From positions 15,950,854-16,014,853 of the forward strand of contig JACGWO010000001.1 of assembly GCA_034509735.1 (NCBI GenBank): a DNA stretch of 64,000 bases, in the 5' to 3' direction. Source of the DNA: Sesamum alatum (taxonomy: Eukaryota > Streptophyta > Magnoliopsida > Lamiales > Pedaliaceae). Below are positions 13,800 through 64,000 of this stretch, in pieces. Positions within the stretch are counted from its first letter, which is position 1. Each line of letters opens with the position of its first letter. The position numbers and the translations under genes are program-made. The notes beneath the pieces were generated by a model. The model had not been told where the DNA came from. It saw only the letters and a list, made by a program, of their open reading frames with translations, and did not search any database.

Positions 13800-15270
13800 T
13801 ATAAATTGGTTGGAACGGTCATCATTTTATAGGACAGTTCCCACAACCGGTCCAAATAACGAATACGACGTCATTTTTGCATTAATACAATATCGTTTTA
13901 ATAACTTGTACTCATGTTGACCTAAATAGGAACGGTCTGTTAATTGTATTACCGTTCCCATTACCGTGCCCACCTAAGGCCGTTCCTAAATTACAGTTGA
14001 TCGTTCCTATATCAATTCCATATACTTATTTTAAGCAATTGCACTAATAGGAACGGTTACTCAGTACGAAAATTGTTCCCATTACCGTTCCTAATTAAAT
14101 ACACGGTGTCATTTCCTGACACCCACATAGTAACCGTTCCTACATTCAAGTGGAACCGTTCCTATATGTATTCCAATATTTCTTTTATCTAGTAAAATAA
14201 TAACTATAGATTAAGAAAAACGCATTCCGATCACTCATCTGATTGAATAAAGATATACAACTGGATAATTAATGAATTTGACTGTATATAGTAATTTTTA
14301 GAAAATACACACACGTTCAGAATATGAAGTTGTTTTTGTATATTTATTTTTGTTAGTATTTCACAGATGTAACTAGGATCCTATGTTGTTGTACTGTACG
14401 GCATAATCAGACCGTCAAAATTCTAATCAAACAATTAGATATGATGTACCATACAAAATAACACATTATATGTAGTTTTGCGGAATTTCGGTGTGCGATT
14501 CTCGAGATATCGTATCCGGTCAATATTCATCGTAAGAAAAACAGATGCATCCTTAAATCCGGGTTGCTGATTGAAAATCAGACCGTTGGACCTTAATTCA
14601 TATCCATAAGCTTGTATGTGTTAAAACATAGTGTCGATCCGGCTGACGGATGTTGAGATATCAGACCAACTGGTTGGAATTGTAATACTAGGAACGGTCA
14701 CCTAATAGACAAGGTGTTCCCAATACCGTTCCTAATGGAAAGGACGATGTCGTTTTAATGCACACACGTATCTACCGTTCCTATTGACAATTGGAACGGT
14801 CGTATATAAACTGACCGGTCCAATAGTTGAATTTCCCACCAATTTTTCATTGGGCGCCAAAACGAAATATTGGACTTCACTTTGGAACGGTCGTAGGTTT
14901 TCACCTACCGTTCCTATTTCAAATTTCCTTCATTTTTTTTTATTAGCCACCATATTTGAAATATTGTACCTCAAATAGGAATGGTCCTGATAAATATGGA
15001 CCGTTCCTATTTTAAATTTCCCTCATTTTTTTTTATTAGCGGCCATATTTGAAATATTGTACCTCAAATAGGAACGGTCCTCAGAAATATGGATTGTTCC
15101 TAATTCAAATTTTTCTCATTTTTTTTAATTAGCCGCCATATTTGAAAATTTGTACCTTAAATAGGAACGGTCCTGATAAATTTGGACCGTTCCTAATTCA
15201 AATTTCTCTCATTTTTTTTGTTTGGCACCTATTCAAATTGTTGTACCTATATTAGGAACAGTGGTTAGAA
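13800..15270. repeat. Internal CCGTTCC repeat arrays between the two CACTA genes
   Basis: ACCGTTCC/GGAACGGT motifs recur in two clusters (about 13810-14170 and 14690-15270) lying between the TNPD and TNPA relics rather than at a terminus. The second cluster is a near-tandem series of about 120-bp units, each with a GGAACGGTCC ... GGACCGTTCCTA pair, a CATTTTTTT tract and a GCCATATTTGAAA segment. Confidence 0.75.
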
Positions 15271-15561: not shown

Positions 15562-15972
15562 CTAGAATGACGGCCCGGCGGCATTGAATACCATCCCCTG
15601 CGCCCAATCCATCTGAGCCGCATCACCCCAATGCAAACTACCCTCCTCCTCCTCGGGTGGCGTTTGTTGCTGCTGCTGCACAGGGGGCGCTGTCAATGCT
15701 TTAAAGTATTCCTGCACCCTCTCCTCACCATGCGAAGTCCAATTGTAATACTCTGGCATAAACCCTTTCATACACAAATCAAAATTTACCTCGTCTGGTG
15801 TTTTGAACCGTTCGTTTTTGCACTTCCGGCAGGGACACTTAATCTTGTCCCCGTCTATATATGCACGCTGAGACTGGGCCCATTCTAAAAATATTGTAAC
15901 ACCATCCTCAAACTCCGGCGTCACACCCAGGACGTATCGATCATACATCCATTTTCCCAACTGTCTTAACAT
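15562..15972 (-). pseudogene. CACTA TNPD transposase, N-terminal fragment (transposase-associated domain)
   Basis: From the ATG at 15972 the frame opens MLRQLGKWMYDRYVLG and carries the transposase-associated domain: FEDGVTIFLEWAQSQ, then CPCRKCKNERF, then YYNWTSHGEERVQEYF. A polyglutamine stretch follows (near residues 96-100). The frame stops at a TAG (15562-15564) but remains recognisable to about 15410 (YVSGLSDHVFDVVHAADQP), where it jumps out of homology. The Transposase_21 catalytic part, seen in the sister element at 57155-57850, is absent, so this element cannot make its own transposase. An upstream intron is suggested by the splice-like sequence before the ATG. Confidence 0.85.
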
Positions 15973-16229
15973 GATTGGTCCTACGTATAATTCACAACAG
16001 TATGCAATTAAATAACGAGAGTTATATATATATACACAAAAATAACAGAATTTTGCATACTTACCTGAGCAAAACACCTATTAATATAAATGCAAAATTC
16101 GCGCTCGGTAATTGATATGTTCGATTTTCCGTATAAAGAATCAAGGGAGGGGGGGAGTTACAACAATATGAGTTGGAGAGTAATTATAAGAACAATGACA
16201 AAGAAGGGGGACATATATATAGAAAATAT

Positions 16230-21923: not shown

Positions 21924-23294
21924 TTCTTAGGTCTGACCCACCTTTTCTTTTTCTTGATCTGCTTCTTCTCTGTTTTAAAAAAAATTGTCTGAGATTTTGG
22001 ACTGGATATATACTTACACATACTTAGATGGGGTTTTGAAGATATATTTTTCCTTTTTTGGGTTTTTGGTCCTCTAAGGTATAGATCTCTGATCTCATTT
22101 CCTTCAGCTTGAATTTTTCTTGGTAAAGGTGGATGCTTTTGTGCTTCAAGTCAATGCTTCCTTCATTCACATTTGATGAATCTTTTCTACAACTTTCTAG
22201 TTAGATTTGCTGAGGAAATTTAGAATCTTGTGATTCAGTTCAGATTTCTGCTACTGGTTCAATTTTTGTTCTGGGGTTTTTCGTTTTCTTTTTCTCAATT
22301 CTTTTGTGTAATTTGTTTAATCATACTGTTTGAGAAAAAGGGTTGTGGGTTTATGTTCAAGACTTGATGCTGGTGATTGTGGAAGGGATGAATTCTCCAA
22401 AAATGTGTGTTTTTTTGCATATATTTAAGCTTGACTTTTTATACTTAAGTAATATTTTTGGTTTTTTGCAGATCTCTGAAGAAATAATAGAACTTTGTTC
22501 TTTCTTGCAGTCCTTCGAGCAGGTTTTACTACTTCTTGCATTCAGATTTGTATTGTGATTGTGGTTCTTTATGGTTTGTTTTAAGTTGTCTTGTACTTTG
22601 CATATACTGCTTAGAAAATACAGGTCCAGGGTATCATTCTAAGCTCCAAATACTATGTTGATGTTTCTTAAAGTTAGCTCAGATTTCAGGGCAACTATTA
22701 CGCTCAATTAAATATCGATTCTGCGGTTTGGAGTTTCCTTTTGTTGCAGTTTGAACTTTATGGGGTGGTTTAGTTTCTATACAGGGCAGTAGCCAGATAG
22801 AATTCTTTTACAGGGCTCGTTTGCGGTAACGGTTAATCTCATCGTAGTGCAAGCTTGCAAATTATGCAAATTTTTGGGCTTTCCTGAAAATATTATTGGC
22901 TTTTGTGTTTAAAGATGTATTCTAAGTGGGAAATTTTAAGGTTTATTGGCTAAAAGTGGATCTTTCTTAGCTGGTTTATTCTTTGCTTCTCAGCAAGTTG
23001 AAGTATTGAAGTTAAACTCACTTCTAGAACCTGGAAGAGCTGTATCTTGTAGAAGTATTTGGTTTCACTCTACTATAGGTCTATATGAAACTGCCCTATG
23101 GAACTTACTGTTTTGTTTTGTTTTTCTTCTTCGCCCGTTGAATGTCTTTTCTCCTTTTTCTTCTTTGCAAGTTACTTATTATTCTGAAAATTGTTCCTCT
23201 GTTGGTAATTTGCAGCTGATTTCACGTTTCGACTGGCTTAGAAATTACTGGGGTACTTCTCACGTTGGTTCCTATTTAGCATTTCGGAGGTTCA
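21721..23294 (+). promoter_or_regulatory. Promoter-proximal and 5' UTR region of the Tubby-like gene
   Basis: A C-rich tract (21725-21775) and CT-rich leader-like sequence, then a (TA)n(TG)n microsatellite (21895-21922), then about 1.3 kb of T-rich DNA without coding potential. A consensus splice acceptor TTTGCAG ends at 23215, 79 bp before the start codon, so the leader probably contains at least one intron. Exact transcription start not determinable. Confidence 0.5.
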
Positions 23295-25370
23295 ATGTCA
23301 TTCCGAAGTATAGCACGGGACATAAGAGATAGTTTTGGGAGCTTATCACGTCGGAGTTTTGATGTGCGGCTTCCCGGTCATCATAGGGGAAAATCACATG
23401 GTTCTTTCCATGATTTGAGTGACCAACCTATGGTAATTCAGAACAGCCGTTGGGCTAATCTTCCTCCAGAGCTACTTTTCGATGTAATTAGAAGGTTGGA
23501 AGAGAGTGAGAGCGCATGGCCTGCTCGAAAACATGTGGTTGCATGCGCTGCTGTTTGTCGATCATGGAGGAGCATGTGCAAGGAAATTGTTAAAAGTCCT
23601 GAATTCTGTGGGAAGCTTACTTTTCCGGTCTCATTGAAGCAGGTAACTTCACATCCTCTTCCTGCTTGTGCCTCAAACAAGAACGGCAAAAGGATGTGTG
23701 TTCTTTTTCGACCATTTCATGGTGCTTAATGCTTTTCGACGGATTTCTTTTCTTCCAAAGAATTAAGAATTGCAGCATTGACATTATCCAATAGCTCTTG
23801 CAACACCTCTATGATTTGCAAATACTAAATTTATGTTTCTTCCTTTTTACAGCCAGGGTCTCGTGATGGAACTATCCAATGCTTCATAAAGAGGAACAAA
23901 TCTAACTTGACGTACCATCTTTTTTTGTGTCTCAGCCCCGGTGAGTATCTTGTCAAACCCTTGAAAGTCCAGTTTGCTATTCATGTTCTAAGTTTTTGGT
24001 ATTATTAAGGTACCACACATCTAATAGAATTATGGAGATTCTATCCACTCATATTTCTTCCCCATTCACGACCGAGATCTGCTCTATTCATGCGTTTTAA
24101 TTTTCCCGAGTATTCCTACTGTTGCAATTGTTCTCATGAGATGTGATACGCAACTTTTGTAGCTTTGCTGGTTGAAAATGGGAAGTTCCTTCTCTCTGCA
24201 AAAAGAACTCGTAGAACGACTTGTACAGAGTATGTTATCTCAATGGACGCAGACAACATTTCCAGATCGAGCAGCACATATATCGGAAAACTAAGGTAGA
24301 ATTAGCATTTGCCGTTCTGTCTGTTTTCACTTTTATTCTTCTATGTATGTTGGTTATTTGCATATTATGTCTTGAGAACCTTCTAGATTGTTCCTCATGT
24401 CAGATGAATGCATTTTCAGTCGTTTTAGTACGTCTTAATAACTGGATATTATTCTGCTTTGGAATCGATTAACTTTGTAATCGTATAATTTGAAAATGAA
24501 AATTATGAACTTTTCTGTCGCCTTTAGATATCGTCTACCTGTATGTTATCTCAAAGAACTCGTAGAACTACTTGTACGTCTATGTTATCTCGTAGGCTAC
24601 GTGTACGGAAAATTGTCGTCTATGTTATTAATAGCAGAAAGCTTTCTGGTTTTCGCAGATCAAATTTTCTGGGCACCAAGTTTATAATATACGACACGCA
24701 GCCTCCACATACTTGTTCACACATCCCACCACCCGGGAGAACAAGCCGTCGGTTCTATTCCAAGAAAGTATCCCCAAAAGTACCGACTGGGAGCTACAAC
24801 ATAGCCCAGATTACATACGAGCTGAACGTACTCGGGACACGTGGCCCGCGTAGAATGCACTGCATTATGCACTCAATACCGGCCTCATCCGTTGAACCTG
24901 GTGGAGTGGTGCCCGGACAACCGGAACTTCTTCCAAGATCGCTCGAGGACTCATTCCGGAGCATCTCCTTCTCAAAGTCCCTCGATCACTCAACTGAATT
25001 CAGTAGCTCCCGATTCTCCGACATCGCGGGTCTGTCAAACGAAGACGGCGACAGTAAAACGAGGCCCTTGGTTCTCAAGAACAAGGCCCCTCGTTGGCAC
25101 GAACAATTGCAATGCTGGTGCCTAAATTTCCGAGGACGGGTCACCGTTGCATCCGTCAAGAACTTTCAATTGATCGCCGCCACACAACCGGCCCCTGCTG
25201 CACCACCGGCTTCTCAGCCAGCAGCGCAGTCCGACCACGACAAAATCATTCTCCAATTCGGTAAGGTGGGCAAAGACATGTTCACGATGGATTACCGGTA
25301 TCCCCTATCTGCCTTTCAGGCATTTGCCATCTGCTTGAGCAGCTTTGACACCAAACTGGCTTGTGAATAG
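23295..25370 (+). CDS. Tubby-like F-box protein
   Basis: Four coding exons with GT-AG borders: 23295-23642, 23853-23940, 24163-24295 and 24659-25370, giving 1281 nt and 426 aa. An N-terminal F-box lies at about residues 50-105 ([18 protein letters not shown] ... [13 protein letters not shown]). A Tub domain runs from about residue 115 ([12 protein letters not shown]) to the C-terminal family signature [16 protein letters not shown]. The basic patch [11 protein letters not shown] is where Tub domains bind phosphoinositides at the plasma membrane. In plants the F-box links such proteins to SCF ubiquitin ligases, with roles in ABA, stress and microbe responses. The sequence is closest in my recollection to Arabidopsis TLP10-type members. 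Start chosen at the MSFRSI context shared by the family. No defect seen; intron 3 contains a partial copy of exon 3. Confidence 0.95.
24525..24640 (+). repeat. Partial exon 3 duplication inside intron 3 of the Tubby-like gene
   Basis: AAGAACTCGTAGAACTACTT and the following TGTACGTCTATGTTATCTC nearly match exon 3 at about 24204-24242. Related shorter units (GTCTATGTTATC-like) follow. They create a spurious ATG-led frame from 24543 that runs into exon 4 and would skip exons 1-3. Confidence 0.75.
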
Positions 25371-28032: not shown

Positions 28033-30182
28033 CTACCATTCCATGGAATGTATTCTCCGCAAAGTTCTTGGAGGTGTTCGTTTCTCTACTACCGGAATTA
28101 GGTTCTCCATGAGCTGCAAACGAATAAAAATGAAAATTTGAATACCACAGCGAAGCCACAGGTAAACTTCTGAATGCATGGTATCGCAGTAGTACGAAAT
28201 GGATTTTCAGGCTACAGATTCACATGTCAAGACCAGATACTATATCCAAGTAGAGCCATATATGTGAGCCACAGAGCTCAACTCCACAGTTTTCATAGTT
28301 GGCCGAACTACCTTTTCTATAGACGACTTACTGTCGCTTGAAAATTCGTCATAAATCAGATTTGGAGCTGCACTGTATATAAGGCACACCAGAGGAGAAA
28401 AGAAGAGATAGCCCCTCACAGGGGAGATGACCTCTATTATAGGCGTGTTCCTTAAAAGCCCAAGTATACATACTGAAAACGTGGAGACAGCAAACATTAT
28501 ACACCTAATTAGAAAGGTAAAGCAAGAAAAAAACTTGTTATTACATCCTGAAACACATAAGCTGAAGACATTTCCCAGAACTCTGTATATTCTTTCAGTA
28601 AAATAATGAAATTAGTCGCATTTGAAGTGCATTATCACATCGGCATAGCATGTCCAACCAACCAAATTAGCATCCAGGTTACTTGTAAAGCTTTAAGAGA
28701 AACAGATAAACTGGCATTGCTCATGTGCAAAACGAACTAAGACAGATATGAGAAAACCCAGAATCGGCGCGAGGTTCTTTTGCCAACCAAGCATTTTGTT
28801 GTCTATGTTCCTTATCCATGTAATTATTATGGTCCACTTAAAGCAAGGACCAATAATGCCGATCTAGTTTACGGAAATTGCTTACTCTATGAAGAAGGAT
28901 AAATCATTTGCAATTAATTTTCAGTAAAATGATACCTGCTTATGTCTCTTCTTATTCAATTCAGCCTGCAAATGAAGAGTTTATTTAGAACCTTCATGAA
29001 TATGATACACAATTCAAGACAGATGTATGATCTTCAGGTAATAAATATACTGCAAGAGAATGAATACAAGTATCCCTAACACATAATCCATCTAAACTAC
29101 AGATTAACATCATACAAATGTTCTATCTTCATCAGCAGGAATGCCAGAATTCGTCAACCCATCGTGTAACAATTTTATGTACAGAAAAACCAAGAACGAA
29201 TCAAAATACACAGAATTTCATTGTAATACGCCCGTTGAAATTTCACCCTATCAACAACTAAATGCTCAATCTGCTCTGTAGAAATGGCTAAAGTTGATCC
29301 TAAAATTATAAAGTTCCACAAAATCCTCAATCATCAACTTGCCACTCCCCTCTTTATATTTGCATGAGTATGATCATAAAAATGGCAGACTCTATAGTCT
29401 ATAGCAGAATTTTCTGAAATTATGTAACAATTGTCTTCGAGAGATTCAAAGGCCAAATAAAAGCTCAATTTTCCAAATTTATATAAAAATGAAAAACAAT
29501 ACCTCTTCTTCCAAAAGCCTGGCATTCTCCTCCTCTAATTGTGTCACCAGCGACTCCAATTCCAGAGTATAAGCCTGGAGGGGACATGAAAAACCAACAA
29601 GAAAAAAAGAAGATGATGAAATTACCGTCACAAAATAAGAATTGATGCGACAAATTGGAGGAGAAAGAAAAACGAAAAAGAAACCTGCTTTCGTTCCCTG
29701 GACCTAGCAGCCGACTCTCTGTTTTTAATCATTCTTCTCTGCTTTTGCTGTGTGGCCTTGTCGAGCGGCACCTCCTCTACAGCCGCCCTCCTCTTCCCTC
29801 TCCCAGAGCCGCCAGCTACCGGCACCACGCCATTCACCCCAAACTCGCCAGTGGCCACCCCATTCTGCACCGGAACCCCAGTAGCAGCAGTCAACAGCGC
29901 GGTCCCCACTCCAAAACCACCCGTCGGCGGCGGAAGCCGAACATCCTCCTCAGTCACCGCCCCCGCCTTAGCCAGGAAATCCTCGAGAGTCATGGCCGGC
30001 GGCTCCGGCGCCATGAAGCCGTTGTCAAGCGCGAATGAGTCGGGAACGGAATAGATGTTCCTGAGCATATCATCAATGTTGATGGAACCGCCGAGGGCCC
30101 CGGTGTGGAGAATCGGGGAGGGCTGACGTGGATGATCCGGATTGGGCTGTGACCTTGAAGCCATCACCTTCGACGACGCCAT
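28033..30182 (-). CDS. Group A bZIP transcription factor, GBF4-like
   Basis: Four exons on the minus strand: 30182-29685, 29574-29503, 28965-28936 and 28113-28033; 678 coding nt plus stop, 226 aa. N-terminal NIDDMLRNIY and MTLEDFLAKAG are the conserved phosphoregulated motifs of group A (ABI5/ABF-related) bZIPs. The basic region NRESAARSRERKQ closes exon 1. The leucine zipper runs through LELESLVTQLEEENARLLEEE in exons 2-3. The C-terminus is RRIHSMEW, matching the SLEW-type ending of GBF4 rather than the ABI5/ABF ending. Group A members bind ABRE/G-box promoters as dimers in the nucleus in ABA and stress responses. Start: first ATG of the frame; an in-frame ATG six codons later is possible. 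No defect seen. Convergent with the Tubby-like gene. Confidence 0.93.
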
Positions 30183-30340
30183 CCGTCATAAAAATGAGCT
30201 GCCCGCCAATTTTCTCGGGTTCTTTTGCCCTCACACTAAAAACTGCAAATTCTTTTAAATATTCTTTTTGCTGCTTGTGTTTGCTAATCTGACAGCGTGG
30301 GTGTCCGGGAGAGTTTGCAGTGACAATAGATACACAAATA

Positions 30341-46300: not shown

Positions 46301-47329
46301 TTAATTGTAACTAATGTTTTAAATAAATTATAATTTAGGTCAAATTAAAATGGACAAAAATTAGATTTGGGATTGAACCCATGCTCAAATTTGGAACCAA
46401 CCATTAATTTTCTATATTTATTTTATAACCCTTAAAAATATTAAAAGTATGTATATTTATAAAAAAAAAGTTTATTATTAATTAATATGTGCATGTTTTC
46501 GTTTTTAGAAATAAAATAAAACATACATTTTTAATTATATTAATGTGTAAACATTAAATTTATGTGCTATAATTGCATTTATTTATTAAAAGTAGATTTT
46601 TTTTAACAAATACAAAACTTATCAGAAAGTATTCCTTCATAAATATTTTTGTGAATTTAGTTGAATTCATTATATAAAAAAGATTAGCAAGAAAAAGAAA
46701 AACTATAATAATTAAAAAGATAAAGTATGCAAAATTTTAAAATACGAAATAGATTGAAATGTAGTAAGCAATAACTACTAATTTTAATAAATAAAAAAAA
46801 AGGGTCGGATAATATATATACCATGCTTGTAGCAACTTACAAATCATACTGCTCTTTGTGATTAATTTTTCTTGCTAATCTTCATAAATATTTGTTATCT
46901 TAATTGTGATTTATTTTTGTTCAATTCATTCTTTTATTCCATCACATTAATTTTTCATCTTTTAAGATTTCTTTGCATCGATGAAAGTGTTTTTGTTCTA
47001 ATTTCATTGCCAGTGGTAATATTGTTATATTTATCATTTAATTGAACTTAGTCATTTTATGTTTATTTGTACTTATTTTATTTAGTCATTCTTGATATTT
47101 AATTTACTCCTACTCTTTTTATTCAAATGGATGAAATGATATTGAGATTTTAAAAAATTATTTTAATTTTTTCTTATCGTCCATCTTTGTTTCTTCTTCT
47201 TTTTTTTAACCATTTCAATTGTATTTCTTATAACTCATTAAAACTAAGTGTCTTTTTTGCTTTATATTTTATTTTTTTAATAAGTAAAATCATATTAGAT
47301 TTATGTACTTTAATGTAGTTTTTGATGGA
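46301..47329. other. Intergenic AT-rich DNA
   Basis: No gene recognised. Probably transposon-derived in part, since it leads into the Helitron-like 3' segment that follows. Confidence 0.45.
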
Positions 47330-47691
47330 AGATAAATTATATAATACAAACAATACATTTGACTAATTCTTTATTTTTGTATATTTTTATATAGGGCTGA
47401 ATATATGTACAAAGTGATTATCTATATATTTAATAGAATGTCATAATTGTTTAAAAGTAATCCTCATATAATACAAATTTTAGTAAGTAGAAATATATTG
47501 TATATATAGGAAAATATGTTTGCCAATAATAATCAAAATAGATTAAAAATTCCAAACTACTATGTTTTACCTATTAAAAATAAAAATTTTATTTTACGTA
47601 AAAGATTCTTTTATAGCACAATATATTTTTTAAAAAAATATTTAATGTTTTTAAAATATATATAATTGTGCAGAGCACGGATCAACACTAA
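47330..47691 (+). mobile_element. Helitron-like 3' segment, copy 1
   Basis: Over about 350 bp it matches 49740-50115 (shared landmarks: TTTTGATGGAAGATAAATTA, TTTAATAGAATGTCATAATT, CTATGTTTTACCTATTAAAA). It ends GTGCAGAGCAC hairpin, then CTAA before a T, a CTRR-type Helitron terminus. The 5' end is not located. Confidence 0.55.
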
Positions 47692-47991
47692 TATATATAT
47701 ATATATACTAATAAGTGTGACGTATTCTATGTATGTGCATAATATTTAAAAAATATTTAATATAGAATATTTTTATAAATTATATTATTTACTTTTTGTA
47801 AAGTTCAAAATTACCTAAAATAAGATAAAATGTATGAGGAAAAAAAATCCACCAAAGGTAGTTATGAAAGATCATGGGGAAGTTAAAAATAATTAATTAA
47901 TTAATTTTTTAAAAAAAATAACAGACCAAATTAATTTGGACACAAAAAAAGCACTCTCCAGTAATAATATAGTATAGATATATATCATATA

Positions 47992-48261: not shown

Positions 48262-48267
48262 TTTATT
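48262..48267 (-). terminator. Polyadenylation signal of the CEP-like gene
   Basis: AATAAA on the minus strand about 40 nt after the stop codon at 48306, at the expected distance. It supports minus-strand transcription of the array. Confidence 0.5.
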
Positions 48268-48305: not shown

Positions 48306-49222
48306 CTACCAAATCAGAGTTTTCCTCATCAGTTCTGCGTTCATGGAAGTTGTGCGATGTGGAGGAGCGCCGGGTGGACGACCGTGACCCATACCTGGGC
48401 TATGACTTTCTGTGTTCATGGACGTTGTGCGAAGTGGAGGAGCCCCGGGAGGACTACCGTGACCCATACCTGGGCTATGACCTTCTGTGTTCATGGACAT
48501 TGTGCAAAGTGGAAGAGCACCGGGAGGACTACCGTGACCCATACCTGGGCTATGACCTTCTGTGTTCATGGACGTTGTGCGAAGTGGAGGAGCCTCGGGA
48601 GGACTACCGTGATCCATACCTGGGCTATGACCTTCTGTGTTCATGGACATTGTGCGAAGTGGAGGAGCATCGGGAGGACTACCGTGACCCATACCTGGGC
48701 TATGACCTTCTGTGTTCATGGACATTGTGCGAAGTGGAGGAGCGTCGGGGGACTACCGTGACCCATACCTGGGCTATGGCCTTCTGTGTTCATGGACGTT
48801 GTGCGAAGTGGAGGAGCCCCGGGAGGACTACCGTGACCCATACCTGGGTCATCTGTGTTCATGGACGTTGTGCAAAGTGGAGGAGCGCCGGGAGGACTAC
48901 CGTGACCCATACCTGGGCTATGACCTTTTGTGTTCATGGACGTTGTGCGAAGTGAAGGAGCGCCGGGAGGACTACCGTGACCCATACCTGGGCTATGACC
49001 TTTTGGGTTCATGGACGTTGTGTGAAGTGGAGGAGCCCCGGGAGGACTACCGTGACCTATACCTGGGCTATGACCTTCTGTGTTCATGGAAGTTGTGCGA
49101 GGTGGAGGAGCGCCGGGAGGACTATCGTGACCCATACATGGGCTATGACCTTCTTTTGTCGGGCGTAAAGCCTTGCTCTCCAAATTCTTATACCTGTTCA
49201 ACTTGAAACTTACATCATTCAT
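48306..49222 (-). pseudogene. CEP-like secreted peptide precursor with eleven tandem units (one frameshift)
   Basis: Eleven tandem units fill 48330-49172; the usual unit is 75 bp, 25 residues: SMNTEGHSPGMGH followed by GSPPGAPPLRTT. The first unit is LRPTKEGHSPCMGH. CEP (C-terminally encoded peptide) hormones are matured from secreted precursors and share an FRPTxPGxSPGxGH-type motif; the first unit retains the RPT part, later units keep GHSPGMGH. Unit 5 is two residues short. In unit 6 one T is missing (near 48748), shifting the frame. The ATG at 49222 gives MNDVSFKLNRYKNLESKA, not a signal peptide, and a stop lies upstream; a 5' exon may be missing or unrecognised. The last residues are RKTLIW. 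Because 75 is divisible by three, plus-strand frames are open too, but show no family motif. Peptide class probable; activity unknown. Confidence 0.7.
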
Positions 49223-49289
49223 CGGAATCCTACCAACATTTCAACAAGTTCAGATTTAGGTACTAACACACACAGACATATATATATAT

Positions 49290-50115
49290 ATATAGACAAT
49301 GGTTGACCGTAATTAAGTTAATTTTGACCAAATAGGCAAATACTAGTTTCTGATAATTTTGAATTTTTTAATTGTCAAGAAAAAAATGTCATTGTTTAGA
49401 ACATCATTTTAATTTAAAATCCAATTTTATTTATCTAAAAAGTCCCATTTTTAAGATTAATGTTTATCTATTCTAAATTCTACCTTCAAAATTATGATTA
49501 ATGTTTTATCATAAAAAATATATATTTGTCTTATCACTAATTATCTATTTTCATTTTAATCATATACTCATATCCCTATAGTTAAACTGATGTTTTGCCT
49601 TTATCATGATATCATTTTACTTTTTATATATTATTTTTCATGATACTTGAAACTTATTAAAAGTAAGTTTCTATTCTTGCTTTATATTTTATGTTATTTT
49701 TTTCACAAAGTAAGATCATTTCAAATTTATGTACTTTAATATAGATTTTGATGGAAGATAAATTATAACAAAGAATACATTTAACTAATTCTTTATTTTT
49801 TATATTTTCTATAGAGTTTTATATTTGAAAAAAAAAGGTAATCTATATATTTAATAGAATGTCATAATTGCTTGAAAGTAATCCTTATAAAATACAAATT
49901 TGATTAGTAGAATGTATTGTGTGTGTACAAAAATATCATTTTCAATAATAATCAAAATAAATTCAAAATTCAAAAATACTATGTTTTACCTATTAAAAAT
50001 GAAAAGTTTTATTTTACAAAAAAGATTCCTTTATTAAGCAATATATTATAAAAAATAAATATTTTTTTTAAAAGAAAAAATTATATAACCACGCGTAGCA
50101 TGGATTCTAAGCTAG
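49290..50115 (+). mobile_element. Helitron-like element, copy 2
   Basis: Ends with the hairpin CCACGCGTAGCATGG and then CTAG before a T at 50116. Its 3' part is homologous to 47330-47691. Left boundary uncertain. It lies immediately upstream of the CEP-like gene start and may have removed or displaced its 5' exon. Non-coding. Confidence 0.6.
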
Positions 50116-50168
50116 TATATATATATATATTCAGAAAGAAAGAGAGAAACAAAGAAAAATAGATATTT

Positions 50169-50519
50169 TTACGCATCACAGTTGACGTTGAGTTGCACGG
50201 GAACGGGGACACCAATCTTGCAAAGCTGGGGAAGTTGCTTTGCGTTATCTTGATTAACTTGAACCGACAATGCAACTTGCTTGAGGCACTGACAAACAAT
50301 TTTTCGATCTGCCGACAAAATAGTGGCTCGATCCAATGATTGAGCACCTACGCAACAAGTGGAGCTAATTTCTCCCACTCCGAGCAGAAAGGACTAGCAC
50401 GACATCAGAAACTCCAATGCTTGTGTGCATGAAATGGCTTCTGCCGGGGCCGGAGGGCTGAAGGTTATCATGGCTAAAACCACCACCGCTACCAACCACC
50501 TCGAATTACTATTACCCAT
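50169..50519 (-). pseudogene. Non-specific lipid transfer protein with one in-frame stop
   Basis: From the ATG at 50519 the frame gives a signal peptide (MGNSNSRWLVAVVVLAMITF ... APAEA), then the eight-cysteine pattern of nsLTPs: ISC, LMSC, STCC, VCQC, LCKI and NCDA, ending at TAA 50169-50171. All eight cysteines are present in a 116-codon frame. A TAG at 50394-50396, right after the second cysteine, interrupts it; everything downstream remains in frame (SFLLGVGEISSTCC). nsLTPs are secreted, bind lipids in a hydrophobic cavity stabilised by four disulphides, and act in cuticle formation and defence. A TATA box is preserved upstream, so loss may be recent, or the stop may be a sequencing error. 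Confidence 0.85.
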
Positions 50520-50574: not shown

Positions 50575-50583
50575 TATTTATAG
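50575..50583 (-). promoter_or_regulatory. TATA box of the LTP gene
   Basis: CTATAAATA on the minus strand, 56 bp upstream of the ATG at 50519, leaving room for a short leader of the kind usual for such genes. Confidence 0.6.
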
Positions 50584-56226: not shown

Positions 56227-57982
56227 ATGTTAAGGCAATTGAGAAGATGGATATATGAGAAGAACCTCCCGAATAGGGGGGGGGGGGGGTCTTACACCGC
56301 AGTTTGAGGATGGTGTTAAAACTTTCATAGAGTGGGCACAATCCCAGCGTCAATATATGGACGGAGATAAGATTAGGTGCCCATCTGTGAAGTGCAAAAA
56401 TGGAAGGTTCAAAAACATCTGACGAGGTCAATTTTGACTTATATAGGCGCGGGTTTGTTCTGGAATATTATAATTGGACTTGTTACGGCGAGGAGAGGGT
56501 GCAGGAGTACTTTGATGCTGTGACCGCCCTCCAGCGCAGGAGGAGCAAACCCCATCTACTTAGGAGGTGGGTAGTTCGCATTGGGGTGATCAACAATAGA
56601 TGGATTGGGCGTAGAGGATGGTTTATGATGCAGCCGGGCCGGGTTATTTTTCTTCTTACGACGAGGGTGTGCCTGACGATGGTACGAGATCATGTCCTAC
56701 ATGGTATGGGGTGGGCGATATGATAATGTGTCAGGGTTATCAGACCGTTTTTTTGATGTAGCGCGCGCTGCCGACCAGCCATTGTGGAGCGGTTGTACCC
56801 AATCTCAGTTGGGGGCGGTTGCTAGTTTGGTGAATATCAAGGCTGAGGGCAATGAATCCGAGCGCACATATGATTGAATGTGCCAGTGGGCTGATCATAT
56901 ATCTCCCTGCGACACACTTTCCCTACTGATTACTACAGTACGAAGAAATTGATTAGAGATTTGGGATTACCTGTTGAGAAGATTGATGCATGTAAAAATG
57001 ATTGCATGTTGTACTGGAAGGACGACATTGATTTAGCGTACTGCAAGTTTTGTGGATAGGCTAGGTACAAGCCGACCCAACAGCGAGACCCCCCCGAAAG
57101 AAGTCCTCGTATGCCGTTCTTAGGTACCTGCCTCTTACTCCCCGACTGTAAAGGTTGTATGCTTCAACAGCGACTGCTGAGCACATGACGTGGCATGCTA
57201 CACATCAGACGGAGGAGGGCTCCATGTATCATTCGTCCGATATAGAGGCTTGGAGGCATTTCAACCAGACATATCCCGACTTTGCATTGGAGCCCCGTAA
57301 TGTTAGGCTAGGGTTATGCACAGACGGGTTTGTGCCGCACGGGCAGTATGGTAAAGCTTACTCATGTTGGCCCGTTATACTCATACCATACAATCTCCCA
57401 CCGGAAATGTGCATGAAGTCCGAGTACATGTTGCTCACGTTGGTGATCCCCGGCCCGTCACATCCGAAGCGTCTGATTGATGTTTATCTGGAGTCGTTGA
57501 TCGAGGAGCTTTTGCAATTGTGGCATGTGGGCGTACGGACGCACAACAGTGCTATGAACCAAGCATTCATGATGTGCGCGGCATTGATGTGGACTGTGAA
57601 CGACCTACCTGCTTATGGGATGGCTTCTGGACGGAATACCGCTGGTATTATGGGGTGTCCAGTTTGTATGGATGACACACAGACATTCTGTCTGCAGCAT
57701 GGTAGGAAGGCGTGCTACTTTGACTGCCACAGACAGTTTTTACCACTGGACCATCATTACCGCAAGAATAAGAAAGCCTTCACTAGAAATCGAGTGGAAA
57801 GGAAGGTTACACACCCGCGGTTAACTGGAGAGCAGATCTGCGACTGGTAAAAGAATTCAGTAGCACGCCAACAAGGAGCAGGAACTTCTCGGATTGCCCA
57901 AGATGATGATGAAGAAGACGAGGATGATGAAGATAGTTTCGAGGATTATGAGACTGATGAAAACGAGTCATTTGGTTTCTAG
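56227..57982 (+). pseudogene. CACTA TNPD transposase relic (transposase-associated plus Transposase_21 parts)
   Basis: Opens MLRQLRRWIYEKNLPNR; a run of 14 G (56276-56289) then breaks the frame. Recognisable in order: FEDGVKTFIEWAQSQ, YYNWTCYGEERVQEYF, VSGLSDRFFDVARAADQP, DLGLPVEKIDACKNDCMLYW, then a long open frame (57155-57850) with EHMTWHA, FALEPRNVRLGLCTDGF, YSCWPVILIPYNLPP, CMKSEYMLLTLVIPGP and RKACYFDCHRQFLPLDHHYR, all typical of Transposase_21. After a stop at 57848-57850 an acidic C-terminal tail follows (57900-57982). Several frameshifts and stops, and the C-terminal half is deleted between EQICDW and the tail. It retains the middle part that the first CACTA element lacks. Confidence 0.85.
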
Positions 57983-59039: not shown

Positions 59040-60803
59040 GAACACCCCCTTCCCCAAACGTTTCAGAAATCCCCCCCACCCCACCCCCTTGGTTCCACCG
59101 CTCGTCGCCGCCGACCACCACCACCGCTCGTCGCCAGCCACCACCACCACTATCCTCCTCCACCGTCGCTCACCACCACCGGTTCCGCTGCCCACTCCCA
59201 CTATCCTCGCCACCACCACCGTCAATCGCCGCTGCCCACCACGACCACCACTCACCGCCACCACCACCAACACTATCACCACTCTCCTCTCTCACTCTCC
59301 TCTGTCACTCTCTCTCTGAAAGGTATGTTTTTTTGTTTTTTTTTTCTCTGAAATTATTTATGTAATTCTTGAAATTTATATTGGGTAGTTTCTGCAAATT
59401 GGGTAGATTATGTAATTTGTGAAATTATTGTAATTTCTGTCAATTTGTGAAATTATTATAATTATTGTAAATTATATTGGGTAATTATTGAAATTTGTAA
59501 ATTATATTGGGTAATTATTGTTCATTTTGTGTAATTATTGTGTAATTTATGAAGTTAGTGCAATTTCTAAAATACATGTGGGCTTTTGAATAATTTTTTA
59601 AATTATTGGGTATATTGAGTAATTTCTGAAATTATTGTGAATTTTTGGTAATTTTTAAAGTTAAATTTTGTATTTTCTGCAATTTCTAAAATTATTTGGG
59701 TATTTTCTGTAATTTCTGAAATTATTGTGTGCTTTTTGGGTAGTCTCTGCAATTTCTGTAATTTTAGGAATTAGTATAATTTTAGGAAATATATGTAATT
59801 TTAGGAATTTTTGTAATTTTAGGAAATCTATGTAATTTCATGTAATTTTAGAAATTTTTGTAATTTTAGGAAATCTATGTAATTTCATGTAATTTTATGA
59901 ACTTTTGTAATTTTTCTAGGAAATCTATGTAATTTCATGTAATTTTACAAATTTTATGAAATTTTAGAAATATACAGAATTTTTTTCTTTAATATTATTT
60001 ATGTAATGTTTGTTATTTATTAGAAAATATTGGTTAATATTGACATTTTTTGGTGTTTTTGAAATTTGGTATTTATTGGTGAATATTGGTATTTATTGGT
60101 TAATATATTTGCAGAAAATTTTCAGAAATTTTCAAATTTTCAGAAATTTACATTGATTTATGTGTAAATTTCTGAAAATTTTCAGAAATTACATTTAAAA
60201 TTTTGTGTAAATTTCTGAAAATTTTCAGAAGTTACATTGAAAATTTATGTGCATTTTGTGTAATTTGTCTAATTTCTGTGCATTTTGTGTAATTTGTGTG
60301 CAAATAGTGTAATTTTTGTGCTTTTTCTGTAATTATTGTGCTCTTTTGTGTAATTATTGCAATTTCTGAAACAATTGTATTATTTTTGTAATTTTGTCGG
60401 ATATGATGACAGACGGTGCTCCGCCCCTCCCGGATGTGGTCGTGGCTGCGGCCGTGGCCAAACGACTCCGGCTGCACCAACACAGTCGCTAGTGCCACAA
60501 GCCCTGCCCGTTGACCCGGCCACTCCAGTGTCATCGACGGCGGAGGTCGGCAGTGGATAGGCCCAGGTGGCCTCGAGTTCTTAGGCCCTCGGGGCCTCGG
60601 CCATGGGATTTACTACCACCACCACCACCACCACCACCACCACTACCACCCGTGCCTGAGTTGCCACCTCCGTCTGCACGTCACTACATCAGCCTCCGCG
60701 ATGCGAGGTAATCTAAAACATATTTATTTAATTATTTTCAGTTGATTTGTTCTTATGTTTTTTTAATTTGAAATTATTTTTTCAGGTCTGACCGAGAATT
60801 TCA
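59040..60803 (+). pseudogene. CACTA TNPA-like gene, 5' part
   Basis: A C-rich leader (59040-59325, CCACCACC repeats) ends near a splice donor AGGTATG. About 1.07 kb of T-rich intron-like sequence follows (variants of GTAATTTCTGAAATTATTG). The coding exon, about 60403-60707, contains GCGRGCGRGQTTPAAPTQ in one frame and ends SARHYISLRDAR in another, so a frameshift separates them; a GT donor follows. Exon 2 begins at 60786 (SDREFH) and is cut off near 60803. It aligns with block 1 and the start of block 2 of the relic at 10703-12181. Confidence 0.65.
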
Positions 60804-62389: not shown

Positions 62390-64000
62390 TTAGTTCAAGA
62401 TGCTGAGACAGTTTTTAAATTTTTCTAAGGAAAGACTTTTAGTGCCCATATCTGCAGGATTATCTTATGAAGAAATTTTATCAAGGTTGATGATCTCTTT
62501 TCCGACAATATCTCTAATAAAATGGTATCTTACATCAATATATTTTGTACGACCATAAAATACTGGGTTTTTGCACAACTGAATACTAGATTGACTATCA
62601 GAAAATACAGTTACCTTTTTGTTTAAGAAACCAATTTCAGTTAACAGTCCCTTAAGCCAAATGGCTTCTTTAAGAGCTTCTGTGGTGGCAATATATTCTG
62701 CCTCAATAGTAGACAATGTAACAATGTTTTGAAGTAGAGCTTTCCAGCTAATGCATGCACAATATAGTGTAAAGATATAAGAAGTAGTAGATCTCCTACT
62801 GTCCCTATCATTAGCATACTTTGAATCTACATAGCCAACTAGGTTCACTCCATCAGGACACTTAGAAAATTTTATGCCAGTATTCATAGAGTTATTCAAA
62901 TATCTTAGTATCCATTTAAGTGCTTCCCAATGCGTAGAACCAACATTTGACATATATCTACTCAGACAGCTAACAAAATAAGCAATATCAGGTCGAGTAC
63001 TTACGATTAAATACATAACATTTCCAATAGCATCCGAATAAGGAACCTTTTTCATGCTTTCTTTTTCAGATATAGTTTTGGGATTTTGTTCCTTACTAAG
63101 TTGAAAATGAGCAGCCAAAGGAACACTAGTAAGTTTAGCATTCAACATTGAAAACTTTTCTAACACAGTTTTCACATAAGATTTTTGATTCAGAAGTATG
63201 GTAGAAGAATTTTTGTTTCTTTCAATAGACATCCCAAGGATTCTTTTAGCATCACCAAGATCTTTCATTTCAAAATTCTTACACATATTATTTTGCAGTT
63301 CTTTAATTAAGGACATGTTGGGACTGCCAATTGGCATATCATCGACATAAAGAACTAGAAACACTGGATCATGGGATTCATATTTGAAATACAAGCATGG
63401 ATCATATGCACTTCTAAGAAATTTCAAAAACTTCATAAATAGATCAAATTTCTTATTCCATTGTCTAGGTGATTGCTTTAGACGATATAAATATTTGTTA
63501 AGCAAACAGACATGATCAGAAAATTTCTTATCAACATAACCGGTAGGTTGATTCATGTAAATTTTCTTGTCCAGTTGACCATGCAGAAAAGCAGTTTTAA
63601 CATCCATTTGTTTTAGTTCCCAGTTAAATGAGCAGTGAGTGCAAGCAGAATTCTTACTGTAGTATACTTTACAACAACAGAAAAGATTTTAGTGTAATCT
63701 ATGCCTTCTTTGAGTGAAACCTTTAGCTACTAGTCTAGCTTTGTAGCGAGTTGAATTATTTTCCTATTTTATTAAAAAATCCACTTGCAGTCCATAACAG
63801 AACTAGCAGATTCTAAAGCTTCTTCATAAGAGGATGGTTCAAAGCCTTCAACATTTAGAGCTAAGTGAAAGTATTTATATTTTGAAGGAATCCTAGGTTC
63901 ACGTCTTTCTCTATCTTTAGCTAATTCATAGTTATTAGTACTAAAGTTATTAGAGATTTCATTAGGATGCTCTTTCTCTATGTTTTGATGTTCATCTATG
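62390..64000 (-). pseudogene. Copia pol relic (reverse transcriptase and RNase H)
   Basis: The main open frame 63607-62465 contains MDVKTAFLHGQLDKKIYMNQ, the catalytic LYVDD (in VLYVDDMPIG), RPDIAYFVSCLSRYM, and the RNase H part with EAEYIATTEALKEAIWLKGL and DSQSSIQLCKNPVFYGRTKY. A TAA at 62465-62467 interrupts it, after which DNPADMGTKSLSLEKF continues in frame to a stop at 62390. Upstream of 63607 the reading (YKARLVAKGFTQ, MDCKWIF, RIPSKYKYFHLALN) continues only with frameshifts and a small deletion near 63770. The copy cannot encode an intact polyprotein. Confidence 0.9.

What the first reader, a model, noticed from the sequence alone, without database searches (positions are those of the whole stretch)
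48306..49222. Plant peptide-hormone-like precursor with eleven tandem CEP-like units
Seen: eleven units, mostly 75 bp, on the minus strand encode SMNTEGHSPGMGH plus a proline-rich linker; the first unit reads LRPTKEGHSPCMGH. Known: CEP hormones derive from secreted precursors, usually with one to several copies of an FRPTxPGxSPGxGH-type motif. Inferred: this is a CEP-family precursor whose domain was amplified by unequal exchange. The units have replaced the FRP part with SMNTE while keeping GHSPGMGH, so they may define a divergent peptide class. Eleven copies would be high for one precursor.
Basis: partly seen in the sequence, partly recalled or inferred. Interest (0 to 1): 0.9.

Follow-up and report, generated by a model that had tools for sequence, protein, structure and literature searches.

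The report
Lipid-transfer gene with hormone-repeat tail
An array of eleven CEP-hormone-like units in a plant genome is the predicted second exon of a lipid-transfer-protein gene, an architecture that annotated Sesamum and Paulownia proteins share; this copy carries a stop codon and a frameshift and is likely dead, but intact relatives would deliver the peptides as tails on a secreted carrier.

Summary
The array is real: eleven units (eight of 75 bp, others 78, 74 and 69) on the minus strand, 49168-48348; seven of eleven keep an exact GHSPG[MI]GH core. A profile of stand-alone Lamiales CEP precursors gives unit 1 43.9 bits (best in 20 random windows: 8.8). But it is not an ordinary CEP gene. 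The best signal-peptide start upstream opens a type-I non-specific lipid transfer protein (nsLTP) exon (50519-50173, same strand). A GT-AG, phase-2 intron would join it to the array as NCDA|IPMNDV. Seven of 15 annotated relatives (Sesamum, Paulownia) show that protein junction; four carry CEP cores, and the Paulownia protein ends exactly in AFRPTTPGHSPGMGH. So a CEP domain was likely captured as last exon of an nsLTP and multiplied in Sesamum (1, 4, 5 and, here, 11 units, degenerate ones counted). This copy has an in-frame TAG in exon 1 and a 1-bp frameshift in unit 6: likely a pseudogene. Ten of eleven units lack Pro4 and all lack Pro7. No transcript or peptide data were available. My paper searches (listings, few papers opened) showed no nsLTP-CEP chimera; the survey methods that I read would tend to miss it.

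The parts
50575..50582 (-). TATA-box-like TATAAATA, about 55 bp upstream of the nsLTP start codon
   Evidence: read by eye in the sequence; no expression data
50173..50519 (-). Exon 1: signal peptide plus type-I nsLTP eight-cysteine domain (spacing 9-13-0-19-1-21-13), ending NCD plus GC of a split codon
   Evidence: 85% identical over 116 aa to S. alatum P0002; PF00234 E=1e-5 on the piece after the stop; cysteine spacing; frame and coordinates
50394..50396 (-). In-frame TAG in exon 1, where all 14 aligned relatives have Gln
50169..50171 (-). TAA that would end the nsLTP reading frame if the intron is kept (GCG TAA overlaps the GT donor)
49230..50172 (-). Predicted 943-bp GT-AG intron, phase 2
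   Evidence: the joined residues match seven annotated relatives at protein level
48306..49229 (-). Predicted exon 2: NRYKNLE leader and CEP-like array, to TAG
49127..49171 (-). Unit 1, CEP-like 15-mer ALRPTKEGHSPCMGH (keeps R3, P4, T5; E at 7, C at 12)
48348..49090 (-). Units 2-11, SMNTEGHSPGMGH type with proline-rich linker
48797..48865 (-). Unit 5, 6-bp in-frame loss that removes part of the core
48723..48796 (-). Unit 6, 74 bp: 1-bp frameshift
48262..48267 (-). AATAAA, a possible polyadenylation signal about 40 bp after the stop
   Evidence: read by eye in the sequence

Best explanation
The array is the predicted second exon of a gene whose first exon encodes a type-I non-specific lipid transfer protein; intact relatives would secrete the lipid-transfer protein with CEP-like peptides as a C-terminal tail, while this copy, with a stop codon in exon 1 and a frameshift in the array, is likely a pseudogene. 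Shown by sequence: the array, the nsLTP exon, the lesions, the GT and AG at phase-compatible places, and annotated relatives with the same protein junction and CEP cores. Inferred: the intron is spliced; an nsLTP lineage captured the C-terminal part of a CEP precursor (NRYK leader, 15-mer, GSPPG tail) as its last exon before Sesamum and Paulownia separated; in Sesamum the domain was then multiplied by unequal exchange. The peptides would be cut from the tail in the apoplast and hydroxylated like CEPs. Because the donor GT overlaps a stop codon (GC|G TAA), intron retention would yield a plain nsLTP and splicing the nsLTP-CEP form.
For: The two best of three protein matches to the array piece are S. 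alatum Salat_0158500 and Salat_0158900, both nsLTP plus CEP-like tail. tblastn places their nsLTP halves at 50519-50172 and their tails at the array, same strand. Junction NCDA|IPMNDV is in phase and fits P0002; a split codon GxG would explain A, V and E at that residue in P0002, P0001 and P0008. Of the 15 proteins, 7 have the exon-2 head and 4 of these a CEP core. Paulownia P0009 is 102 of 150 identical to S. alatum P0002 through both domains and ends in AFRPTTPGHSPGMGH. A profile of five stand-alone CEP precursors scores 43.9 bits on unit 1 and 9.9-19.7 on the ten others; best of 20 random windows 8.8. In the 2.3 kb scanned upstream the nsLTP Met has the strongest signal-peptide-like start (3.44; the only other candidate 2.04). 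In S. calycinum P0008 four diverged units agree in 30 of 48 core cells against 8 and 10 of 48 in the flanks. Type-I nsLTP genes in rice and Arabidopsis have, with one exception, a single intron 2-73 bp before the stop (PMC2277411, passages), a natural place to gain a new last exon.
Against: No transcript data: the relatives are gene models, seen only as proteins, so their introns were not seen; P0008, P0010, P0012 and P0013 are labelled UNVERIFIED_CONTAM by the source. In three Sesamum relatives with the exon-2 head (P0010, P0011, P0013) the CEP core is absent or decayed, and the P0001 model lacks 25 residues of the nsLTP domain. Changes among eight of the eleven units are 7 silent to 17 replacement, as expected without selection. 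Six of the 15 proteins have no tail or at most a few residues and two have unrelated tails. The tree does not resolve the fusion's origin: the rows with the exon-2 head alone are rejected as a clade (p-AU 4e-5), because tail-less models sit among them; Sesamum plus Paulownia, a group that I named after seeing the tree, is not rejected (p-AU 0.14). Internal CEP domains of plants are enriched for a following basic residue (PMC5103176, passages); here GSPPG or similar follows.
Confidence: 0.78

Rival explanations
1. An ordinary multi-domain CEP precursor gene with its own signal peptide, next to an unrelated nsLTP gene; the annotated fusions are gene-prediction errors.
For: Clear CEP homology; multi-domain CEP precursors exist, five to seven domains in apple (PMC6387203, passages). 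A second, weaker signal-peptide-like frame starts at 50176 (31 codons, score 2.04); without transcripts it cannot be excluded as a first exon.
Against: The array's frame is open for only about four codons before the predicted exon start, and its first Met (MNDVSFKLNRYKNLESK) is followed by no hydrophobic stretch (read by eye; this Met lay outside the scan). The same protein junction recurs in seven annotated proteins of Sesamum and Paulownia, and the IPxND head is not in the five stand-alone CEP precursors.
Confidence: 0.1
2. A real nsLTP-CEP fusion whose tail is a proline/histidine/glycine-rich cell-wall extension and not a hormone source; the repeats serve as a wall anchor or are drifting.
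For: Proline-rich linkers; no basic residue directly after the cores; within-array changes look neutral; decayed tails in three Sesamum relatives.
Against: Paulownia keeps a textbook CEP 15-mer right at the stop; the core is what stays alike among the diverged S. calycinum units and, weakly, in the array (3 of 24 changes in 24 of 75 positions, one-sided p 0.027).
Confidence: 0.25
3. The lesions in the window are assembly errors and the gene is intact.
For: A 1-bp indel in a tandem array is a typical assembly fault; units 7-11 remain open in their frame.
Against: The exon-1 TAG is a substitution, not an indel, and unit 5 also lost part of its core.
Confidence: 0.12

Closest known systems
Canonical (group I) CEP peptide-hormone precursors
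   Same: 15-residue domain with an SPGxGH end (exact in 8 of 11 units here), NRYK leader and GSPPG-like trailer as in the stand-alone precursors P0003-P0007; tandem multiplication
   Different: carried by an nsLTP exon across a predicted intron; ten of eleven units here lack R3, P4 and T5, and all lack P7
Type-I non-specific lipid transfer proteins
   Same: signal peptide, eight cysteines at 9-13-0-19-1-21-13; Paulownia P0009 matches solved nsLTPs by sequence and its model by fold, 5tvi and peach Pru p 3 among them; intron beside the usual stop codon
   Different: long CEP-repeat tail; the window copy carries a stop codon
Group II CEPs (CEP13-15)
   Same: conserved C-terminal half with a divergent N-terminal half (PMC12494267, passages)
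   Different: His in place of Pro9; different precursor
Mixed CEP/PIP precursors of pea and Medicago (PsCEP20/22/23, MtPIP8)
   Same: CEP domain joined to another secreted-peptide module (PMC9739355, passages)
   Different: partner is another small peptide, not a folded carrier protein

Membership tests
CEP gene family | canonical 15-residue CEP domain | tested here: inconclusive
   unit 1 43.9 bits, ten others 9.9-19.7, against 8.8 at most in 20 random windows; Pro4 missing in units 2-11, Pro7 in all, Cys at position 12 in unit 1
CEP gene family | N-terminal secretion signal followed by a variable region | tested here: not met
   the array exon shows no signal peptide of its own; the strongest one upstream begins a folded nsLTP domain; a weaker candidate frame at 50176 exists
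CEP gene family | single-exon gene (PMC4197245, PMC5103176; but cotton models with 2-5 exons in PMC11050269) | tested here: not met
   predicted 943-bp phase-2 intron between signal peptide and CEP domains; splicing itself not shown
CEP gene family | secreted, hydroxylated 15-mer perceived by CEPR1/CEPR2 | not testable with these tools
   no peptidomics or assays
Type-I nsLTP | eight-cysteine motif and signal peptide | tested here: met
   interrupted by TAG in the window copy
Type-I nsLTP | one intron 2-73 bp before the stop (PMC2277411) | tested here: inconclusive
   a GT lies at the normal terminus (GC|G TAA), but the predicted exon 2 is 924 bp long
Type-I nsLTP | small mature protein, about 6.5-10.5 kDa (PMC2277411) | tested here: not met
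   the four relatives with a CEP core are 149-268 residues long, signal peptide included; masses not computed

The most novel reading that the evidence does not exclude
A lineage of Lamiales plants turned a lipid transfer protein into a hormone carrier: splicing versus retention of one intron, whose donor overlaps the nsLTP stop codon, switches between a plain lipid transfer protein and one that releases up to eleven CEP-like peptides, and the SMNTEGHSPGMGH units are a new CEP subclass.
Probability: 0.2. Interest if true: 0.88.

Novelty: new variant of a known kind. Interest (0 to 1): 0.64.

Why it matters
It would be a CEP hormone domain made from a folded, lipid-binding carrier instead of a small dedicated precursor, gained by exon capture and then multiplied in one genus. 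The sesame nsLTP survey dropped mature proteins over 120 residues (PMC8157352, passages), and the large CEP survey scanned reading frames with a secretion signal and a canonical domain (PMC4197245, passages), so both filters would tend to miss such genes. Related genes with 0, 1, 4 and 5 cores form a natural series for asking which half of the peptide is needed.

Tried and rejected
Pfam on the two array pieces gave nothing but one chance match; Pfam gave no match for the three stand-alone CEP precursors that I gave it, of five. PDB sequence search with the first array piece gave 0 matches. A test for selection within the array was neutral: 7 silent to 17 replacement in 8 of 11 units; units 1, 5 and 6 were left out. 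AlphaFold of P0009 gave nsLTP helices at modest confidence and a tail mostly under pLDDT 50, so nothing can be said about the tail's shape. The tree does not settle whether the fusion arose once; P0020 was left out of it, so 14 of 15 relatives plus the window were used. The script failed and was mended. One search used intron bounds 2-4 bases off (50170-49226); one search gives the right ones (50172-49230). A search for one terminal-repeat motif in the window found nothing; the kind of element behind the dispersed repeat was not determined. The species of the window was not determined; its closest proteins are of Sesamum alatum.

Full report
Observation. The minus strand between 49168 and 48348 holds eleven tandem units; TRF reports period 75, 11.1 copies, 92% matches, the highest score of its 69 rows. 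Unit 1 reads LRPTKEGHSPCMGH; units 2-11 read SMNTEGHSPGMGH-like followed by GSPPGAPPLRTT-like linkers. A degenerate codon pattern for the core occurs 7 times, all in the array, and was not found in 100 shuffles. So the description is right and not chance. Two facts were missed: unit 6 is 74 bp, so the reading frame shifts and units 7-11 lie in another frame (frames 48716-49240 and 48306-48752), and unit 5 lost 6 bp inside the core. Seven of eleven units have an exact GHSPG[MI]GH and eight an exact SPGxGH (counted).

Homology. A search of about 5.8 billion proteins with the 174-aa piece found three proteins with E up to 1: S. alatum Salat_0158500 (P0001, 4e-63), S. alatum Salat_0158900 (P0002, 8e-21) and an unnamed 102-aa protein (P0003, 2.5e-3). 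P0001 and P0002 are an nsLTP followed by CEP-like units. P0003 and its relatives in Perilla, Paulownia and Erythranthe (P0004-P0006), and another unnamed one (P0007), look like stand-alone CEP precursors: a hydrophobic N-terminus and one domain, such as AFRPTTPGNSPGMGH. A profile built only from C-terminal pieces of 33 residues of these five finds unit 1 at 43.9 bits and the other ten units at 9.9 to 19.7; the best score in 20 first-order random windows was 8.8, so the weakest unit (unit 5) barely exceeds chance on its own. For unit 1 the match covers 30 residues, from the NRYK leader through the SPPG trailer, so it is homology and not only a shared short motif. One caution: P0003 was itself found through the window.

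The missing first exon. tblastn with P0001 and P0002 places their nsLTP halves at 50519-50172 on the same strand and their tails at the array. The window exon has the eight cysteines at 9-13-0-19-1-21-13, the same as P0002, P0008 and P0009. It ends ...NCD, then GC, then GTAAAA. Read on, this is GCG TAA, a stop; spliced to the AG at 49231-49230 it gives NCDA|IPMNDVSFK, as in P0002 (NCDAIPMNEVSFK). The intron would be 943 bp and phase 2. That the residue at the split codon is A, V or E in P0002, P0001 and P0008 fits a GxG codon with its last base from exon 2; the DNA of these relatives was not seen. In a scan of Met-led frames of at least 22 codons in 51500-49230 two passed my hydrophobicity threshold of 1.9: the nsLTP Met (3.44) and a 31-codon frame at 50176 inside the predicted intron (2.04). 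A TATAAATA lies about 55 bp before the ATG and an AATAAA about 40 bp after the final stop (read by eye).

How far the architecture extends. A search with P0002 gave 15 proteins. By my count on all 15, 7 have the exon-2 head (I[PM]xN[DE]V): P0001, P0002, P0008, P0009, P0010, P0011, P0013. Four of these have SPGxGH-like cores: P0001 five, P0002 one, P0008 (S. calycinum) four, of which three pass the stricter pattern, and P0009 (Paulownia fortunei) one. In P0010, P0011 and P0013 the core is decayed or absent. Two others have unrelated tails (P0017, P0018) and six have none or at most a few residues; P0012 and P0014 end at NCDA and P0016 at DCDA, as the unspliced reading would. P0008, P0010, P0012 and P0013 bear the source label UNVERIFIED_CONTAM. 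P0009 and P0002 align through both domains, 102 of 150 identical, and P0009 ends with AFRPTTPGHSPGMGH. Because the IPxND head is shared by Paulownia and Sesamum but not by the stand-alone CEPs, one capture before the two lineages parted is the simplest account. The nsLTP tree is too weak to prove it: Sesamum plus Paulownia as a clade, named after I had seen the tree, is not rejected (p-AU 0.14); the rows with the exon-2 head, without or with S. angolense, are rejected (p-AU 4e-5; 3e-4), since tail-less models nest among them.

Amplification. The units differ between relatives: in P0001 the repeated piece is about 34 residues (QLNRYKNLESKALRPTKEGHSPGMGHGSPPGAPP), in the window 25, in P0008 25-26. 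So multiplication happened at least twice; I infer unequal exchange. In P0008 the four units are diverged: 30 of 48 core cells agree against 8 of 48 before and 10 of 48 after it, which suggests that the C-terminal half of the peptide is what is kept. In the window 3 of 24 changes fall in the core (24 of 75 positions; one-sided p 0.027, two-sided 0.047), but the silent/replacement ratio is neutral; these counts use 8 of 11 units, and the left-out units 1 and 5 have core changes too.

State of this copy. The TAG at 50396-50394 stands where all 14 aligned relatives have Gln, and unit 6 has a frameshift. Either would stop production of the full array. I take this copy to be a pseudogene, recent because units 7-11 are still open in their frame; an assembly error could explain the indel, less easily the TAG.

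Likely mechanism in intact relatives (inferred). The nsLTP signal peptide brings the protein to the apoplast; the nsLTP domain folds (P0009 and its model match known nsLTPs); the tail, modelled without confidence, would be open to proteases that release CEP peptides. Retention of the intron would leave a plain nsLTP.

Comparison. Plant CEP genes are described as single-exon genes (PMC4197245 and PMC5103176, passages), although a cotton survey lists models with 2-5 exons (PMC11050269, passages). Canonical group I CEPs have Pro4, Pro7 and Pro11, group II Pro9 and Pro11 (PMC12494267, passages); the window's units 2-11 mostly keep only Pro11 and fit neither. A tomato study found SPGXGH/N in all CEP proteins that it analysed (PMC10515272, passages). 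The highest domain count per gene that I read was five to seven in apple (PMC6387203, passages); I did not survey this further. On print: one search listed 20 of 260 papers with three of four terms; one search listed 6 papers with both 'CEP domain' and 'lipid transfer protein', of which I read passages of two; one search listed 2 papers with CEP and Sesamum, not opened; one search listed 5 of 414. None of the titles or abstract starts reports such a chimera. Most subscription journals are not in that library.

Verdict. A real and unusual architecture, seen here in a damaged copy, with splicing and function untested.

Noticed in passing
window 47232-47706 and 49651-50130: A segment of about 490 bp in the predicted intron is 80% identical to one downstream of the array, same orientation: an AT-rich repeat flanking exon 2.
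   Followed up: partly
window 50081-50176, minus strand: A 31-codon frame MRKNIYFSLFLSFFL... inside the predicted intron, weakly signal-peptide-like.
   Followed up: no
window 14907-15219: 3.4 copies of a 93-bp unit, 89% matches.
   Followed up: no
window 59407-60365: Dense overlapping short-period AT-rich tandem repeats.
   Followed up: no
window 23280-25367: F-box and Tub domain pieces on the + strand, as of a Tubby-like F-box protein gene.
   Followed up: no
window 29631-30185: bZIP transcription-factor piece on the - strand, just below Pfam's cut-off.
   Followed up: no
window 57152-57847, 15565-16077, 62468-63688, 464-1990: Mobile-element pieces: tnp2 transposase, transposase-associated domain, RVT_2 (copia-type) reverse transcriptase and plant mobile domain.
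   Followed up: no
P0001 (S. alatum Salat_0158500): The annotated model skips 25 residues of the nsLTP domain, including the CxC, so it is probably mis-annotated.
   Followed up: no
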